NCBI RefSeq assembly: GCF_021533835.1 | Contig: NZ_JAKFYQ010000002.1 | Coordinates: 496,001 to 560,000 of the forward strand | Reading direction: 5' to 3' | DNA: 64,000 nt | From: Synechococcus sp. Nb3U1 | Lineage (GTDB): Bacteria; Cyanobacteriota; Cyanobacteriia; Thermostichales; Thermostichaceae | Part shown: piece after piece, positions 4,407 to 10,576 of the stretch | Numbering within the stretch: position 1 is the stretch's first letter | Layout of the letters: each line of letters starts with the position of its first letter | Translations under genes and position numbers: made by a program | Notes under the pieces: generated by a model | Databases searched by the model: none | Seen by the model: the letters and a program-made list of their open reading frames with translations, nothing else | Told to the model about the DNA's origin: nothing

Positions 4407-5186
4407 ATGCTACCCAGAGCTGATTTATTGCAAGGTGCAGAGTACCGAGAAACCCTGGCGCGAATCTTGGATTTGGGAGAACAAGCCCTCAAAACCTGGC
4501 AAGTGGTCTGTAGCGATTTTCTCTCCCCACCGGAAATGGCTGAAGTGCAGGCCCGCCTGCAAAAGTTGACCGAGCTACAGATAGCAGCATCAGGAGGCTA
4601 TCCACAAGCAGAACGGCAACGCCTAGCCCTATCCCGCTCGGAAGTCAGTATTGAGCCAGCAGGGATCCCGCTGGCCGCCATTCAGATTCAAGGGAACTTT
4701 CTGTTCGACCCAGCCACCCACCGTGATTTTTTGGGGGCACTATTGGGATCCGGCATTACCCGCGATAAAGTGGGCGATGTCATTGTGTTGGAAGACTCAG
4801 GTGCTCAGGCGATCGTTGTGCCAGAAATGGAGGAGTACCTCAAGGCAAACCTCACTCAAGTCCGTACAGTGCCTGTTAAGGTGAGCGGAATCCCTTTTGA
4901 ACAGCTCAAAATTCAACCTCCCCGCACCAAATCCATCACCAGTGTGGAAGCTTCCCTACGGTTGGATGCTGTGGCATCAGCAGGATTTAGCATGTCCCGC
5001 AGCAAGATGGTAGAGGAAATTCAACGGGGGGAAGTGCGTGTGAATTGGAAGCCGATCACCCAAGCTAGCTATACTGTTGGCCCTCAAGATCTAATTGCCA
5101 TTCGCGGGCGTGGTCGCCTACACATTGAGGAGGTTGTCAAGACTCAAAAGGGCCGCTTCCGGGTGCAAATGACTCGCTATCTCTAG
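4407..5186 (+). CDS. Photosystem II S4 domain protein
   Basis: 259 residues from the ATG at 4407. The frame is open further upstream but would run through tRNA-His, so this start is preferred. The C-terminal third is an S4 RNA-binding domain: LRLDAVASAGFSMSRSKM, then a VRVNWKPI strand and an IRGRGRL motif. The N-terminal two thirds match the YlmH-like fold of the cyanobacterial/plastid PS_II_S4 family, including a GNFLFDPATHRDFLGALLG segment. Family members are linked to photosystem II by phylogenetic pattern; the RNA target is unknown. Confidence 0.85.
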   Translation: MLPRADLLQGAEYRETLARILDLGEQALKTWQVVCSDFLSPPEMAEVQARLQKLTELQIAASGGYPQAERQRLALSRSEVSIEPAGIPLAAIQIQGNFLFDPATHRDFLGALLGSGITRDKVGDVIVLEDSGAQAIVVPEMEEYLKANLTQVRTVPVKVSGIPFEQLKIQPPRTKSITSVEASLRLDAVASAGFSMSRSKMVEEIQRGEVRVNWKPITQASYTVGPQDLIAIRGRGRLHIEEVVKTQKGRFRVQMTRYL

Positions 5187-5235
5187 AGCCTGAAATACGC
5201 TCCCGATGGCCGATTAGAGGCGGGTTGAGCGTTAT

Positions 5236-6039
5236 TCACCGCAAGGGATCCCCAGGCTCATCTTGATCTCGGAGAGTACGCACAAAGTGATAGGGGGGTA
5301 AAGGGGTGCTCCAGTCTAGTTGCCAATTGGGGTGCTGGGCTAGCCAAGTTTGACTAATGGAGTCGGCCTGCTGCTTTTCGGCGGGTGTGAGTAAAAAATA
5401 AAGCCGTAGGGCTTCTTCAGACTGGGGATCCACCGCTTGGATCGGCCAAGTGGGGGGCCAAAGCTGTTGCAATTCTGCCAACTCTTGTTCTTGGCGTACT
5501 TGTACCTGTTGTTGCTGAAGGTAGGCTTGTTTGCGGGCCAAAAGATAGGCCGTTCCGCTCAGGGAAGACTGTGGATCGGGTTGCGGCTGAGGTTGAACCA
5601 TGCCCTTGAGGCAATACTCAGCGCGTCCCCCAATGGCAGTGAGGGTTTGTTCATACTCCACTTGCCGGGCCAACAGATGGGATCCGAGTTTTTCGGCCGA
5701 GAGGAAACAGGTGCCGAAACGCAGCGGCAGCACCGGGATCTGGGCAAAGAGCCGACAGATCACCTGATCATGGCGCAGGGCGGATCGCACCAATACTTCA
5801 TCGGAGGCTTGCAGGGACTCGGGATTCTGCATCGGCTCCACAGCCGCGGCAATGCGACTGCCCACAGGAGAAACCACCTGTATAGACTGCTGGATTCCTT
5901 CTGTTTGCTGAATGAACTGCAATAGCTTGGGATCCGGCTGCGGCAGAAAAGCATAGGTGTAGAGGGGGCTAGCTTCCTTTTGAGGGATCCGATCCGGCTG
6001 AGTGGGAACTGTCATTGCGGCAGATTCAAGGGGTTGCAT
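5236..6039 (-). CDS. GvpL/GvpF gas-vesicle family protein
   Basis: 267 residues from the ATG at 6037-6039, preceded by GGAGGGAGAG, so the longer frame to 6141 is not used. LYTYAFLP at the start, PLRFGTCF in the middle (the family's conserved PvRFGt motif), a Gln-rich helical insert and the closing WSTPLPPYHFV (GP/PPY-like) identify the GvpF/GvpL family. These proteins normally help assemble gas vesicles together with the shell protein GvpA. No gvpA or other clear assembly gene lies nearby. The only other gvp-like gene is the GvpV-type frame at 42807-43115. Its role here is therefore open. Confidence 0.8.
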   Translation of the reverse strand: MQPLESAAMTVPTQPDRIPQKEASPLYTYAFLPQPDPKLLQFIQQTEGIQQSIQVVSPVGSRIAAAVEPMQNPESLQASDEVLVRSALRHDQVICRLFAQIPVLPLRFGTCFLSAEKLGSHLLARQVEYEQTLTAIGGRAEYCLKGMVQPQPQPDPQSSLSGTAYLLARKQAYLQQQQVQVRQEQELAELQQLWPPTWPIQAVDPQSEEALRLYFLLTPAEKQQADSISQTWLAQHPNWQLDWSTPLPPYHFVRTLRDQDEPGDPLR

Positions 6040-6221
6040 ACTCTCCCTCCTCAGTCTACGAAACCTGGCTCGGCCCTTTCGAGGAGTTCCACAGGCAGCT
6101 TGGGGATAAGGTAAACTAACTTCGCACAGGTTTGGCCCCAAAATAACTAAAGGCTGGAAATCCTGTTTTCTGAGATCCCCCTCTGAATCTTCTATTCTGA
6201 ATCTCCCCAGCAGGTGAGGCT

Positions 6222-6821
6222 ATGACCAGCCGCTCAGACTTCAAGCCCTTTGAACAAGCAGAAACCGAACGGTTACGGGATCTACTGCCGGCTTCTCTCC
6301 GACCGCTGATTAGCATTGTTCCCAACTTTGCTGGGGATGCATTGCTACTCTCCCGCCGCAAAGCCCCTTGGCAGCCTCAGGGCACGATTGCTATTGATTT
6401 TCGCCGCTGGCAAGGGATCCCTCAACCACAACGAGATCTGCTGTTTTTGCGGGAGGTGGGCTGGTTTGACAATCGCAACTGGTTACAGCCAGGGTTTTAC
6501 CAATCTCTGGCTCTGATTGGCGGCATCACCACCTTGGCGGAACTCTCGTTGCAGCATCCCTTTTCTGCTCTTTTGGCAGGGGGGATTACCGCGCTTTCCG
6601 CTCGCCAGATTTGGCAGAATCTGAACCGCGAAAGTGCTCATTTTGATGCGGATGAATTTGCTTTGCGTCGTGCCCAATACCGTGGATACTCCCGCCAAGA
6701 GGCTGCTCAACATCTAGTGGATGGTCTAGAACACACCCTCAAGCTGGATCCCACTGATATCCTCACGGCACTGCGTTTGCAGCGACTGAAAGCAATTGCT
6801 CTGAATCTTCATCAATCCTGA
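6222..6821 (+). CDS. DUF3318 membrane protein
   Basis: A 199-residue cyanobacterial DUF3318 protein. LLPASLRPLISIVP opens it, RDLLFLREVGWF sits near residue 73, then two hydrophobic segments (about 95-108 and 114-126) and a soluble, helical tail. No function is established for the family. The ATG at 6222 follows CAGGTGAGG. The gene is divergent from the GvpL/F gene and its 3' end faces the accessory patch with the 109-bp repeat. Confidence 0.75.
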   Translation: MTSRSDFKPFEQAETERLRDLLPASLRPLISIVPNFAGDALLLSRRKAPWQPQGTIAIDFRRWQGIPQPQRDLLFLREVGWFDNRNWLQPGFYQSLALIGGITTLAELSLQHPFSALLAGGITALSARQIWQNLNRESAHFDADEFALRRAQYRGYSRQEAAQHLVDGLEHTLKLDPTDILTALRLQRLKAIALNLHQS

Positions 6822-6890
6822 GAAATTCCAGGCAGGGACTTTATCCTCATAACCCCACTTGATCTGAAACTATCTGGCAGGAGTTTTCCG

Positions 6891-7015
6891 GGATCCGCAC
6901 CTCTACAGGGATCCCGTCAGGAGAACCCAAATCATTGGGATCCAGCTTCTTACAGGGATCAGCCTGGATCCCTGGAAATTGGGAAGCTCTAGCAAAGTCG
7001 AGTCAATCAGGATCC
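6891..7015. repeat. Dense cluster of GGATCC/GGGATCCC palindromes
   Basis: Five copies of GGATCC occur at 6891, 6909, 6938, 6966 and 7010. The motif, often extended to GGGATCCC, recurs throughout the whole window in genes and gaps alike; this is simply the densest spacer cluster I saw. It behaves like a highly iterated palindrome in the sense of cyanobacterial HIP1, with a different sequence. Confidence 0.85.
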
Positions 7016-7023
7016 CTGTGAGG

Positions 7024-7132
7024 CTTCGTTCTTTTCCGACTTTGCGAAGGCCCTTGAGTTAAGCAAAAAACCTTATGAAGTAAGAGATTAACCTGAATCT
7101 ACTGTATCAGATAACGTTAGAAAAGGCTCTAC
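7024..7132 (+). mobile_element. 109-bp MITE-like repeat, copy A
   Basis: Aligns without gaps to copy C (58155-58263; 83 of 109 positions identical by hand count) and, more weakly, to the reverse complement of copy B (20078-20186). The right end AGAAAAGGCTCTAC and the interior TTCCGACTTT are recognisable; the left terminal repeat is worn (CTTCGTTCTTTTCC instead of TTACAGCCTTTTCC). It encodes nothing. It sits 9 bp beyond the stop codon of the EndoU toxin gene, between convergent genes. Confidence 0.75.
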
Positions 7133-7141
7133 TTAGATAAG

Positions 7142-8299
7142 CTATGGGTTTCGGATCACCCCAGAGCCGCTAATGGGAACTGCAGTAATAATTCCCTCAC
7201 CGTCCGACTCTATAACTACTCCAGTTGTCACTCCATCAACAACAGGTAGGGATCCGTCTGAGTTCATGACAAGATACCTTACTGGAGCTTCTGCATTAGT
7301 AAATCTTGGGCCGGAAGGTGATGTGTGAATAGTGCCTTGTCCTGGTTCATTCTGTTGTAACCAGCCTAATCCTGACCTTGTAGCAAGGTCTGCTGCTGTT
7401 TCTGGGATCTTTTGAGGTGTCCAACTGGGGGGAAACTCCGTCTTTCCAGGATTACCAACTCCAGATAGGTGTCTCCCACCACTAGCATCACTGTAGAGAA
7501 TATGTTTTTCTCTTTGGGGGCTAATAATCCCCTCGTAGAAAGGGGATCCCATGGTCACACTCAGATGAGGGTCGGACTGCCGGATTGTCCAAATCTCGGC
7601 AACCCGGGATGGCTCTGCTGGAAAGGATTCCGTTTCTGAGATGCCTACTTCCTCAGGATCAAGGATTGTCGTCTCCGGCAAGGTGGGAGGTGCTTCTGGC
7701 AGAGGGAAGCTAGGTAGAGGGAGGGCCACAGGGATCCTGTTTTGGAACGCATCGGTGAGTTCATATTCTGGTAAGGGCAAAAACAACGGCTCATCCGGCG
7801 GAACCGCCAAGCGGGTGGTGACCAGCCCAACATTCAACTCCACTCCCTGCCGAGCGGCCTGCACATTCAATTCCCGAATCGAATCCGTGTAGATGTACAC
7901 CACCGTCACCCCAGCTGTCGCCAGCGCTACCACCCCTACCCCTGGCAATAAGGACAGCAAGAGCGGCACAAACTTAGCTGAAATAGCAACAACTGCTCCA
8001 GAAGCCAGCAAAAGGTCAATTTCACTTGCCGGTAGAGCTGGAATGTCAACACCTGCAACCACCACCACAGAAGTTCGAACCTCTATAGGAGGCGGAGCCA
8101 TCTCATTCAAATTGGGCTCTGGGGGTTCTGGAACGGGAATAGAAGGGGGAGGGGTGAACCAAGCTGGGAGCCAAAGACTCAGAAGCGCTGCCACAGCTTG
8201 CCAAAACAACCCCCAAAGCGGGGACAAACAGCTTCCATTGCCGCCAGGGATGATTTTCACGTCGGCATCTTCATAGGATCTGGACAATATGAAATTCAA
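7142..8299 (-). CDS. Membrane-associated protein with C-terminal EndoU-type nuclease toxin domain
   Basis: Up to 385 residues from a TTG at 8297-8299; a GTG at codon 14 is an alternative start, and neither has a strong ribosome site. The N-terminal part has hydrophobic segments (about 28-48 and 98-137) and a long proline-rich linker. Residues 265-385 match the bacterial EndoU ribonuclease toxin domain: KHILYSDASGGRH (H266, H277), NPGKTEFPPSW (K286) and the terminal ITAVP (T372, usually TAYP). EndoU domains cleave tRNA or other RNA in contact-dependent and polymorphic toxins. The architecture of trafficking region, linker and C-terminal toxin fits such a toxin. No immunity gene is visible just downstream, where a 109-bp relic lies. 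Confidence 0.75.
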   Translation of the reverse strand: MNFILSRSYEDADVKIIPGGNGSCLSPLWGLFWQAVAALLSLWLPAWFTPPPSIPVPEPPEPNLNEMAPPPIEVRTSVVVVAGVDIPALPASEIDLLLASGAVVAISAKFVPLLLSLLPGVGVVALATAGVTVVYIYTDSIRELNVQAARQGVELNVGLVTTRLAVPPDEPLFLPLPEYELTDAFQNRIPVALPLPSFPLPEAPPTLPETTILDPEEVGISETESFPAEPSRVAEIWTIRQSDPHLSVTMGSPFYEGIISPQREKHILYSDASGGRHLSGVGNPGKTEFPPSWTPQKIPETAADLATRSGLGWLQQNEPGQGTIHTSPSGPRFTNAEAPVRYLVMNSDGSLPVVDGVTTGVVIESDGEGIITAVPISGSGVIRNP

Positions 8300-8496
8300 A
8301 TCAAGTTGGAAGAGAGCTTAATAGCTCGGGATGAAGATTGGGTTAAGGTCGACAAAATATTTCATTAAATTTTGAGAGCCTCCGTTGATATCCGGAAGCT
8401 GTCGGAAGGTGCGGAGCCAATTTTCAATGCAGGCTTTCAAAAAGGGAGGTAGGGTTATCTTGGGCGCTGTACTGGACGGGCTGCTAGGGTAGTGGG

Positions 8497-9165
8497 ATGA
8501 CTGCTCTGCCGCTGACTTATCGCTTTCAGTCTCCCCGCCAAGCTAGCCTGGGATCCACGCCGCTGCTGCTGATGTTGCATGGGATCGGTAGCCACGAAGG
8601 GGATCTGATCCAACTGGCTCCCTACTTGGATCCGCGCTTTGCTGTGCTCAGTTTGAGGGCACCGATTCCCCTCAGTATGGGAGGATTTGCCTGGTTTGAG
8701 ATGACCTGGACAGAAGAGGGGCCGGTGGGGAATATCCCTCAAGCTCGCACCAGCCTGCGGCTGCTAAGTTCCTTCCTAGATCAGGTTCTGCAGGAAGGGA
8801 TCCCGGATACAGCTCTCGATTCCGCTCGAATATATTTGATGGGGTTTAGCCAGGGGGCAATCATGAGCCTCTATTTAGCCCTTATCCAGCCAGAAAAACT
8901 AGCTGGGATCGTCGCCATGAGTGGGCGTTTGCCCGAAGAAGTTGTGGCCGAAGCGGTGGAGCCTGAGCGGATGAAAAACCTGGCCATCTTGGCGGTGCAT
9001 GGAACTGAAGATGCCGTTCTGCCCATACCCTTTGGCCGCGAGATCCGCGACTATTTTACCCGACTGCCTCTGGACTTTACCTACCGAGAGTACGACATGG
9101 GCCATGAGGTTTCCCCCCAGAGCCTTTTGGATATTCAGGACTGGCTACGGGGACGATTGAATTGA
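8497..9165 (+). CDS. Alpha/beta hydrolase, carboxylesterase/phospholipase family
   Basis: 222 residues. LLLMLHGIGSHEGDL near residue 23 supplies the oxyanion hole, GFSQGAIMS (about 116-124) holds the nucleophilic serine, AVHGTEDAVLP the acid and YDMGHEV the histidine. This is the full triad of the small esterase family that includes YpfH and plant/bacterial carboxylesterases. The likely reaction is hydrolysis of short acyl esters in the cytosol; the substrate is unknown. The gene is a single unit, convergent with the cytosine deaminase gene. Confidence 0.85.
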   Translation: MTALPLTYRFQSPRQASLGSTPLLLMLHGIGSHEGDLIQLAPYLDPRFAVLSLRAPIPLSMGGFAWFEMTWTEEGPVGNIPQARTSLRLLSSFLDQVLQEGIPDTALDSARIYLMGFSQGAIMSLYLALIQPEKLAGIVAMSGRLPEEVVAEAVEPERMKNLAILAVHGTEDAVLPIPFGREIRDYFTRLPLDFTYREYDMGHEVSPQSLLDIQDWLRGRLN

Positions 9166-9214
9166 GTGGAGGAGAAGGGTCCTAGGTCAGGGATCCCTGC
9201 CCTGCCCCCCCTTG

Positions 9215-10576
9215 CTAGACCGACACCGCGCCCACTTTGGCCATCAAGTCATCCAGCTCGCTATAGTCGGGCAAAGTGGTATCGATCGCCTTCCCCTGGC
9301 GCAGCACCACGCGGTCATGCTGAGGGCGAGAGAGCAACTCGTCAAAGCCTCGCCCCTTGAACAACACCAAATCGGCCATCAAACCCACCCCAATTTGTCC
9401 CCGATCCGACAGGCCCATGACACGGGCTGGGGTTGTGGTAATCGCCTGGGGCCAGTCTCCGTAGGGAGTATCCAGGTGCAGAATGCGAGTTGCCTCCCGG
9501 AACACCTCTAGGCCATCGTGATCCCCGAAGCCATAAAAGGGATCCCGGCAGTTGTCACTGGCCACCATCACCGGCACCCCTAGGGCCTTGAGTTCGTGCA
9601 GCAGGGTCACCCCCCGCCAATAGGGGGTATGACCAGGGTTGCGATCTTGCAAATACAAGTTGCACATGGGCAAGCTGACCACGGCAATTCCAGCTTCTCG
9701 CACCATATCCATGGTTTTGTGAGCCACTTCCGGCGGTTGCACCGCCAAACTACAACAATGGCCACAGACCACTGAGTTGGGAAAATTGCTGCGCAAGGCT
9801 GCTGCCGCCACATGTTGCAGGGTGATCGCCTCCGGATCATGGGTTTCGTCAGTGTGAAAGTCCAGATCCAAGCCTCGCTCCTTGGCCAAGGCAAACACCC
9901 GATCCAACTGCCGATCCAAGTCTGGACCCATCGCTGTGACGCCACCAAGGATCCCGCCTACGTCCGCCACTTTGTCCGCCAGCTTTTCCCCCTCTGGGGT
10001 GAGGAAATACTCCAGGGCCAAGATCGTGACTGCCTGGAGCTCTAGCTTGCCGGCCCATTCCTGACGTAACTGAGCAAATACATCCAGGTTAGCAATGGTT
10101 TGGGGACTGGTACAGGAGATGTGGGTGCGTACCGCCTGGGATCCATGAGCATAGCTGCAGCGCAGGCCAAAATTGAAACGGCAGTAGACATCCTCCCGGA
10201 ATTGCTCCGGATCACTGGCATAGACCTGTCCCATCTTTTCCCAATCGTCACGGGCGGCCTGGGCAGCACTGGCAAAGGTGCCATCGGGGTTGCGGGTGCG
10301 GGTCCACACATGCCCTTTATCGAGATGGGTGTGAATATCCAAAAAGCAAGGCCACACCTGTCCCCGTTTGAGATCCAGGCTCAGGATCCCTTCTGGAGCA
10401 GTGCTGTTGGCCGGTTGGATCTGAGTGATCACCCCCGCCTGAATCTCCAGATCCAGCAAGACCAGATTGTCTGGGTTGAGGGTGGCCCCAGGTACCAGAT
10501 CTCTGAGAACCGAGAGGGGCACTTGGGCATTGAGCAACCGGTAGTGGTCAACGCTGGGGATCTGCATGGTGGGCAT
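9215..10576 (-). CDS. codA: Cytosine deaminase-type amidohydrolase
   Basis: About 453 residues from the ATG at 10574-10576, chosen because GGGAG lies ten bases upstream. The amidohydrolase metal motifs are present: DIHTHLDKGH, DFHTDETHD, VCGHCCSLA and ASDNCRDPFYGFGDHD (the catalytic Asp). The closing MADLVLFKG is typical of the COG0402/cytosine deaminase branch. The expected reaction is cytosine to uracil plus ammonia. No pyrimidine transporter is adjacent. A URC1-like gene elsewhere in the window (55258-56517) could use uracil, but this link is only inferred. Related deaminases acting on other pyrimidines cannot be excluded. Confidence 0.75.
   Translation of the reverse strand: MPTMQIPSVDHYRLLNAQVPLSVLRDLVPGATLNPDNLVLLDLEIQAGVITQIQPANSTAPEGILSLDLKRGQVWPCFLDIHTHLDKGHVWTRTRNPDGTFASAAQAARDDWEKMGQVYASDPEQFREDVYCRFNFGLRCSYAHGSQAVRTHISCTSPQTIANLDVFAQLRQEWAGKLELQAVTILALEYFLTPEGEKLADKVADVGGILGGVTAMGPDLDRQLDRVFALAKERGLDLDFHTDETHDPEAITLQHVAAAALRSNFPNSVVCGHCCSLAVQPPEVAHKTMDMVREAGIAVVSLPMCNLYLQDRNPGHTPYWRGVTLLHELKALGVPVMVASDNCRDPFYGFGDHDGLEVFREATRILHLDTPYGDWPQAITTTPARVMGLSDRGQIGVGLMADLVLFKGRGFDELLSRPQHDRVVLRQGKAIDTTLPDYSELDDLMAKVGAVSV

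What the first reader, a model, noticed from the sequence alone, without database searches (positions are those of the whole stretch)
7142..8299. EndoU-type polymorphic toxin with no visible immunity gene
The C-terminal 120 residues carry the EndoU pattern: KHIL with His266, GGRH with His277, GKTEFP with Lys286 and a final TAVP. An N-terminal membrane region and proline-rich linker precede it, as in contact-dependent toxins. In such systems the immunity gene follows the toxin on the same strand. Here the downstream 320 bp has no frame of useful length and instead holds a mobile-element relic 9 bp from the toxin stop. Either immunity is lost, tiny, or encoded elsewhere, or the domain has been tamed (Val replaces the usual Tyr of TAYP).
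Basis: partly seen in the sequence, partly recalled or inferred. Interest (0 to 1): 0.7.

Follow-up and report, generated by a model that had tools for sequence, protein, structure and literature searches.

The report
Disarmed EndoU toxin gene without immunity
A cyanobacterium carries what looks like the leftover of an antibacterial RNA-cutting toxin whose protective partner gene is missing and whose export signal is out of frame, so it is probably a stranded relic rather than a loaded weapon.

Summary
Window 7142-8299 (-) is one open frame of 385 codons; residues 258-385 are a bacterial EndoU ribonuclease domain. Pfam alone is sub-threshold (17 bits; cut-off 25.3), but a profile of 22 relatives built without the window picks only this frame out of 920 (E 6.6e-23). 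H266, H277, K286 and T372 are kept; V374 sits where 30 of 33 relatives are aromatic. In 28 of 33 relatives another gene, mostly MafI-like, follows the toxin; here none does, and two MafI profiles find none in the genome. The element near the stop is a 107-bp MITE-like repeat.

New: (i) the EndoU part has foreign-looking codon composition, fused to a carrier found only in this genus; (ii) a lipoprotein signal shared with a sister species lies upstream, out of frame, so the 'N-terminal membrane region' is largely a misread; (iii) the flanking genes are apart in 5 congeners.

Best reading: an acquired polymorphic-toxin C-terminus on a lipoprotein-type carrier, now disarmed, immunity lost. Known kind; modest interest.

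The parts
7142..8299 (-). toxin ORF, 385 codons plus stop, TTG start at 8299 (an in-frame ATG, M67, lies at 8099-8101)
7145..7528 (-). EndoU RNase domain, residues 258-385; GC3 0.32, foreign-looking
7502..7504 (-). H266 codon (first EndoU His; H in 31 of 33 relatives)
7469..7471 (-). H277 codon (second EndoU His; H in 33 of 33), preceded by R276 where 31 of 33 have Gly
7442..7444 (-). K286 codon (K in 33 of 33)
7178..7186 (-). T372-A373-V374: motif where 30 of 33 relatives have Y/F/W/H at 374
7640..8119 (-). carrier body, residues 61-220, shared with a sister species (G005) and in part with a second copy in the own genome
7886..8038 (-). hydrophobic stretch, residues 88-138, possible membrane hairpin
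   Evidence: Kyte-Doolittle, 19-residue windows
8154..8234 (-). lipoprotein-signal remnant (KLFVPALGVVLASCGSASESLAPSLVH), in a different frame from the toxin and without an ATG/GTG/TTG start ahead of it
7025..7131 (.). 107-bp MITE-like dispersed repeat, left end eroded
6822..7141 (.). region where an immunity gene would be expected: none found

Best explanation
It is a disarmed polymorphic toxin. A carrier so far seen only in this genus (lipoprotein signal, proline-rich linker, hydrophobic segment, second linker) received by recombination a foreign EndoU ribonuclease C-terminus. In the working ancestor the lipoprotein route would have exported the protein, the EndoU part would have cut RNA (tRNA or U-containing RNA) in a neighbour, and a small MafI-type protein encoded just downstream would have protected the producer. 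In this genome the lipoprotein signal is out of frame with the toxin and has no start codon, so the product, if made at all, starts elsewhere and is not exported; the immunity gene is gone, at a rearranged place next to a MITE-like insertion. Loss of export or expression, perhaps with a weakened active site (V374, R276), made loss of immunity tolerable. Shown by sequence: EndoU homology, retained residues, unusual composition, no MafI found, out-of-frame signal, changed gene neighbourhood. Inferred: RNase activity, former delivery, a fused ancestor, order of the losses, present silence.
For: EndoU homology. In 28 of 33 relatives an ORF starts 2-59 bases after the first base of the toxin stop, 25 of them MafI-like by profile at E <= 0.1; of 19 such proteins (of the 28) given to NCBIfam, 11 match MafI. 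Own genome: NF033691 best E 0.76 and a 19-row profile best E 0.066, both inside one 681-codon frame. Lipoprotein remnant: 27 aligned codons with G005, 21 base differences, 3/4/14 by codon position in the lipoprotein frame, binomial P 0.0018; a search with the G005 protein finds it at E 4.2e-7. Carrier body formerly under purifying selection: dN/dS 0.24 (NG86) or 0.34 (YN00) over 159 codons. EndoU GC3 0.32 against 0.65 (SD 0.07) in 296 windows of other long frames of the window, none that low. The flanking DUF3318 and hydrolase genes are far apart in G001 and G004 and on different contigs in the drafts G002, G003, G005.
Against: The frame is still open over 391 codons and H266, H277, K286, T372 are intact, so it is not obviously dead. 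The frameshift argument rests on two genomes, one a 120-contig draft, and in G005 the signal is out of frame in a different phase, so a fused ancestor is inferred, not seen. Part of the carrier (residues 61-120) is also low in GC3 (0.40; 5 of 775 windows elsewhere as low), so composition does not set EndoU apart from the whole carrier as cleanly as the domain mean suggests. 5 of 33 relatives also lack a recognisable immunity gene, though 3 of these are truncated, disrupted or run to the contig end. An immunity protein of another family anywhere in the genome would be missed. No expression data.
Confidence: 0.6

Rival explanations
1. A live toxin whose immunity comes from an unrelated, unrecognised protein encoded elsewhere.
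For: Open frame and intact catalytic residues; EndoU toxins are listed with several immunity types (Imm28, SUKH, SuFu) in the tables of PMC3482391 (passages).
Against: 28 of 33 relatives keep an ORF directly downstream; no such ORF here; export signal out of frame.
Confidence: 0.12
2. A tamed EndoU: the domain no longer cuts RNA efficiently and the protein is kept for something else, or is harmless enough to persist. (Overlaps with the best explanation.)
For: V374 where 30 of 33 relatives are aromatic, R276 where 31 of 33 are Gly; no immunity gene found.
Against: The catalytic histidines, lysine and threonine are kept. The only test of selection (dN/dS) covers the carrier, not EndoU; no close EndoU relative was found to test it.
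Confidence: 0.15
3. The frame break is a sequencing or assembly error; the gene is an intact lipoprotein toxin that merely lost its immunity gene.
For: A frame break needs only a small indel.
Against: The sister genome G005 independently has the signal out of frame; the window copy also lacks about 226 bp that G005 has between signal and body, and its signal frame has no start codon.
Confidence: 0.08
4. Two separate genes: a small lipoprotein gene and, just after its stop, a toxin gene starting at M67 (GTG at the same place in G005).
For: In the window the lipoprotein-frame stop lies just before ATG67, and G005 has GTG at the aligned place.
Against: The proline-rich linker is read in the toxin frame upstream of that start in both genomes; the lipoprotein frame has no start codon in the window.
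Confidence: 0.1

Closest known systems
MafB EndoU toxin with MafI (Neisseria; PMC4287609, passages seen)
   Same: secreted toxin with a C-terminal EndoU RNase domain; many EndoU relatives here are followed by MafI-family proteins
   Different: no MafI here; no Pfam family matches the carrier, and it was not compared with MafB directly; export signal out of frame
CdiA-CT EndoU of CDI systems, such as the C-terminus of the Rhizobium protein in L007 or STECO31 (PMC9086364, passages seen; Michalska 2018 not held, recalled)
   Same: EndoU domain with His-His-Lys residues; modular C-terminus
   Different: 385 aa, not a giant protein; no immunity gene; a CdiB partner was not searched for
SitA lipoprotein toxins of myxobacteria (PMC5562445, passages seen)
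   Same: architecture inferred for the ancestor: lipobox, middle part, C-terminal nuclease
   Different: no sequence relationship tested; here the lipobox is out of frame and no immunity gene follows
EndoU plus MafI gene pairs of filamentous cyanobacteria (L005, L006)
   Same: EndoU 39% identical, same phylum
   Different: frames of only 133 and 138 codons, so no carrier fused; MafI begins 22-23 bases after the toxin's stop codon

Membership tests
EndoU_bacteria (PF14436) | score over the curated cut-off of 25.3 bits | tested here: not met
   17.0 bits (whole protein), 20.7 bits (domain); the 22 relatives aligned to it all match the family at E <= 0.01
bacterial EndoU superfamily (homology) | significant similarity to EndoU domains by a profile not containing the query | tested here: met
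   E 6.6e-23, only hit among 920 frames
bacterial EndoU superfamily (homology) | His, His, Lys and Ser/Thr active-site residues | tested here: met
   H266, H277, K286, T372 aligned with H, H, K and S/T in 31, 33, 33 and 29 of 33 relatives
bacterial EndoU superfamily (homology) | BECR/EndoU fold | tested here: inconclusive
   model pLDDT 83.9; Foldseek no hit at E <= 0.001; VIA-align rows 1-5 are two CDI-system entries, XendoU (Z 4.2, rmsd 3.2, 95 aligned), 3ao9 and colicin E5 (2djh); best Z 5.4 (7m5f, rmsd 3.8, 88 aligned), a middling value by the tool's own note
bacterial EndoU superfamily (homology) | RNase activity | not testable with these tools
   none
polymorphic toxin system | shared N-terminal carrier with differing C-termini | tested here: met
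   three copies of the carrier (window, G000:C1, G005:C57) diverge after about residue 220; but only the window copy has a recognisable toxin domain, and the other two tails match no Pfam family, so they may be mere truncations
polymorphic toxin system | cognate immunity gene immediately downstream | tested here: not met
   MafI not found in the genome by two profiles
polymorphic toxin system | functional export signal | tested here: not met
   lipoprotein signal out of frame and without start codon; other export routes not tested
SitA lipoprotein toxin | SitA homology and TraA/B | not tested
   no search made

The most novel reading that the evidence does not exclude
Unicellular cyanobacteria of this genus have, or recently had, their own family of lipoprotein-anchored polymorphic toxins (SitA-like in plan, with no known sequence link) that swap C-terminal RNase domains, and this locus is a surviving armed cassette whose producer escapes self-harm without an immunity protein through frame-blocked export and a weakened EndoU site.
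Probability: 0.18. Interest if true: 0.55.

Novelty: new member of a known kind. Interest (0 to 1): 0.3.

Why it matters
If right, the locus is a snapshot of how a polymorphic toxin decays: foreign toxin domain, broken export, missing immunity, intact active-site residues. It bears on the question of which is lost first, toxin delivery or immunity, and points to a carrier family so far seen only in one cyanobacterial genus. If it were live it would be an exception to the toxin-immunity pairing rule. As a likely relic it is mainly of annotation and evolutionary interest.

Tried and rejected
Immunity gene replaced by the repeat: rejected, the repeat is a 107-bp MITE-like element and the sequence beyond it shows no MafI. 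MafI elsewhere in the genome: two profiles, nothing convincing. Family search of the own genome with PF14436 found nothing; its controls rang in 0 of 14 genomes, so that answer shows nothing by itself. First genome-contig scan with the whole protein found no relative. Profile search of solved structures by sequence (A1) found none. Foldseek against the PDB: no match at E <= 0.001. The CDI EndoU structure 5HKQ is not among the rows shown (50 of 151, 12); this says nothing about the fold. The 44-residue tail of the G005 copy, read as a possible second toxin start: no match in plasmids and no Pfam family on that protein. G077 is a chance hit beside genes that look like dnaK and dnaJ (names by eye); G001:C1:370862 lies on an ORF that looks like an unrelated lipoprotein. 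Rfam: nothing in 5000-10000 at E <= 0.1. Papers: in the rows listed (20 of 30; 10 of 29; 8 of 30; 15 of 16; 10 of 73; 8 of 144; 15 of 143) no title or abstract start is about polymorphic toxins or MITEs of this genus; one search named Thermostichus and JA-3-3Ab beside toxin terms, and neither name occurs in its 15 listed papers. That is absence from those listings only.

Full report
OBSERVATION. The frame at 7142-8299 (-) is open for 391 codons stop to stop and 385 from the TTG at 8299. Pfam gives only EndoU_bacteria, below the curated cut-off (17 bits, E 0.0079, cut-off 25.3; 20.7 bits, E 0.00056 for the domain alone). This is a matter of divergence, not of chance. The whole protein finds, by tblastn in plasmids, a Rhizobium protein annotated 'hemagglutinin repeat-containing protein' over residues 258-375 at 42.9% and E 9e-15. 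The last 142 residues find 2 further genomes, own genome excepted, of 386 of the phylum, at E 2.6e-10 and 2.7e-11. A profile built from 22 relatives without the window singles out this frame among all 920 stop-free frames (40 codons or more) of the window, E 6.6e-23. The 22 relatives all match PF14436 at E <= 0.01.

RESIDUES. In an alignment with 33 relatives (31 loci plus L007 and L008), H266 is H in 31, H277 in 33, K286 in 33, and T372 is T or S in 29. V374 is unusual: Y 16, F 9, W 4, H 1, R 1, S 1, V 1; the R and the S are L052 and L054, whose ends look disrupted or truncated, and the other V is L056. R276, just before the second histidine, is G in 31 of 33. The 33 are not independent: several filamentous-cyanobacterial loci and several Rhodobacteraceae loci are near-copies of each other. 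The review PMC9086364 (passages) gives a His-His-Lys triad for EndoU CdiA toxins; PMC3482391 (passages) lists H, H, [SNT], [SNT] for Tox-EndoU. That the aromatic residue after the Thr/Ser takes part in base binding is recalled.

STRUCTURE. AlphaFold2 on the 142-residue domain with 23 sequences gave mean pLDDT 83.9 and pTM 0.78. Foldseek found nothing at E <= 0.001. In the second look by VIA-align, the first five rows are two entries titled contact-dependent inhibition systems (7m5f, Z 5.4; 5i4r, Z 4.3), XendoU (2c1w, Z 4.2, rmsd 3.2, 95 aligned), 3ao9 (a sequence-specific ribonuclease, recalled as colicin E5) and 2djh (colicin E5); other rows follow at Z 2.4 and below. By the tool's note Z under 8 may mean only a common arrangement. 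This agrees with a BECR/EndoU fold but does not prove it.

IMMUNITY. In 25 of 33 relatives an ORF that starts 2 to 59 bases after the first base of the toxin stop matches a MafI profile at E <= 0.1 in a small set, 13 of them at E <= 1e-6. Three more (L050, L053, L056) have an ORF of 88, 193 and 91 aa at 4 to 25 bases without a profile match. Five have none: L029 and L031 (other-looking ORFs follow), L032 (frame runs to the contig end), L052 (disrupted) and L054 (truncated near the contig end). Of 19 of these 28 downstream proteins given to NCBIfam, 11 match NF033691 MafI at E <= 0.01. In the window nothing of the kind follows: no ORF of 40 aa with a start in 6822-7141, no stop-free frame over 64 codons, and no MafI match better than E 4 in six frames of 6000-9200. 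In the whole genome NF033691 reaches E 0.76 at best and the 19-row profile E 0.066, both in one 681-codon frame. Limits: NF033691 misses 8 of the 19 neighbours at 0.01, and another immunity family cannot be excluded.

THE REPEAT. Window 7031-7131 occurs many times in the own genome: 38 further matches are listed, which scored 40 of 110 candidates there. Fourteen of these copies aligned with the window copy give a 107-bp consensus with a perfect 13-bp terminal inverted repeat, TACAGCCTTTTCC; the window copy, 7025-7131, matches it at 90 of 107 positions and its left end is eroded. It is a MITE-like element. Target duplication and parent transposon were not determined. It explains nothing about immunity except local rearrangement.

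CARRIER AND FRAMES. Residues 45-220 are 81% identical to a stretch of G005:C57, and residues 99-221 are 90% identical to a second place in the own genome, G000:C1:1967897-1968265; no other of 39 relatives has a match. Of 386 genomes of the phylum none besides the own has a credible match (at most 6 candidates scored per genome; the one other hit, G077, is a chance match). The own second copy (window 7650-7989, 98% at DNA level) is joined directly to the 5' end of the hydrolase gene (window 8505-8588, 93%), so it is a shortened duplicate of this toxin-hydrolase block. The three copies diverge after about residue 220; only the window copy has a toxin domain. G005's copy ends early beside a gene that looks like pdxA (name by eye). 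The regions on the two sides of the G005 copy match two separate places in the own genome, C1:1993179-1995098 and C1:473428-475504, neither at a toxin copy, the first being 25 kb from the shortened one. Carrier codons show 20, 16 and 42 differences at positions 1, 2 and 3 and dN/dS of 0.24 to 0.34, so it was once a useful protein.

Upstream, G005 has a lipoprotein-like ORF with KLLIAALGAVLASCGKASESLGPSLVH; the window has KLFVPALGVVLASCGSASESLAPSLVH at the aligned place, 8154-8234, in a frame different from the toxin ORF and without an ATG, GTG or TTG start ahead of it. Of 21 differences 14 fall on third positions of that frame (P 0.0018), and a search with the G005 protein finds it at E 4.2e-7. 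Hence residues 1 to about 48 of the reported ORF are mostly an out-of-frame reading. In G005 the signal is also out of frame with the body, in another phase, with about 226 bp more between them. The proline-rich linker is in the toxin frame in both. I read this as two independently broken copies of a lipoprotein-carrier-toxin gene; a two-gene arrangement with a start at M67 is a rival.

ORIGIN OF THE DOMAIN. GC3 drops from about 0.57 in the linker to 0.32 over residues 258-385. Other long frames of the window average 0.65, and of 296 windows of 128 codons none is at or below 0.32, the lowest being 0.40 (some of the 36 frames may be shadows of genes). In 60-codon windows both ends of the domain (0.32, 0.33) are below all 775 windows elsewhere; but carrier residues 61-120 are low too (0.40; 5 of 775 as low), so the carrier is not uniformly host-like. 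EndoU domains are rare in the phylum sample: 4 of 386 genomes including this one, at most 11 candidates scored per genome (the profile contains the window). A step like this is expected where a toxin cassette has been swapped in.

SYNTENY. The DUF3318 gene (6222-6821) and the Abhydrolase_2 gene (8497-9165) on either side lie about 857 kb apart in G001 and 1.44 Mb apart in G004, and on different contigs in the drafts G002, G003 and G005. Whether this genome or its congeners hold the older order is not known. The toxin thus sits at a join, a natural place to lose an immunity gene.

MECHANISM AND VERDICT. Most likely a former polymorphic toxin, delivered as a lipoprotein (inferred), that cut RNA in recipients (by homology) and was neutralised by a MafI-type partner (by analogy with relatives; in PMC4287609, passages, the MafB EndoU toxin is an RNase blocked by MafI, and 3 of 4 mafI genes tried could not be deleted). 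Here export and immunity are gone while catalytic residues remain. SitA lipoprotein toxins (PMC5562445, passages) show that such a plan exists elsewhere.

Noticed in passing
L060:6444-6483 (G005:C57), and L089: The 3' end of the pdxA-like gene (name by eye) in the sister genome, right beside the truncated toxin copy, is about 90% identical (with small gaps) to the 36-bp repeat of a CRISPR-like array in G005:C2 (12 copies at 72-80 bp spacing in the 1 kb read; one search lists more to 23.5 kb)..
   Followed up: partly
window 7025-7131: A 107-bp MITE-like element with 13-bp inverted repeats: 38 further matches listed in this genome, none among the listed matches in the 5 congeners (which scored 40 candidates per genome), which suggests a lineage-specific expansion.
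   Followed up: partly
L058:7751-8416 (G000:C1): Second, shortened toxin-hydrolase copy between genes that look like speD and surE (names by eye); its ORF begins in the antisense of the hydrolase start and runs into the toxin body.
   Followed up: partly
L088:1183-1704 (G358): A 173-aa ORF about 4 kb before the EndoU-MafI pair of this cyanobacterium matches the EndoU profile weakly (E 7.8e-8), with KIL and GAH in place of HIL and GGH; perhaps a divergent or decayed toxin.
   Followed up: no
window 5236-6141: GvpL/GvpF gas vesicle protein gene (E 2.5e-36) on the minus strand near the toxin.
   Followed up: no
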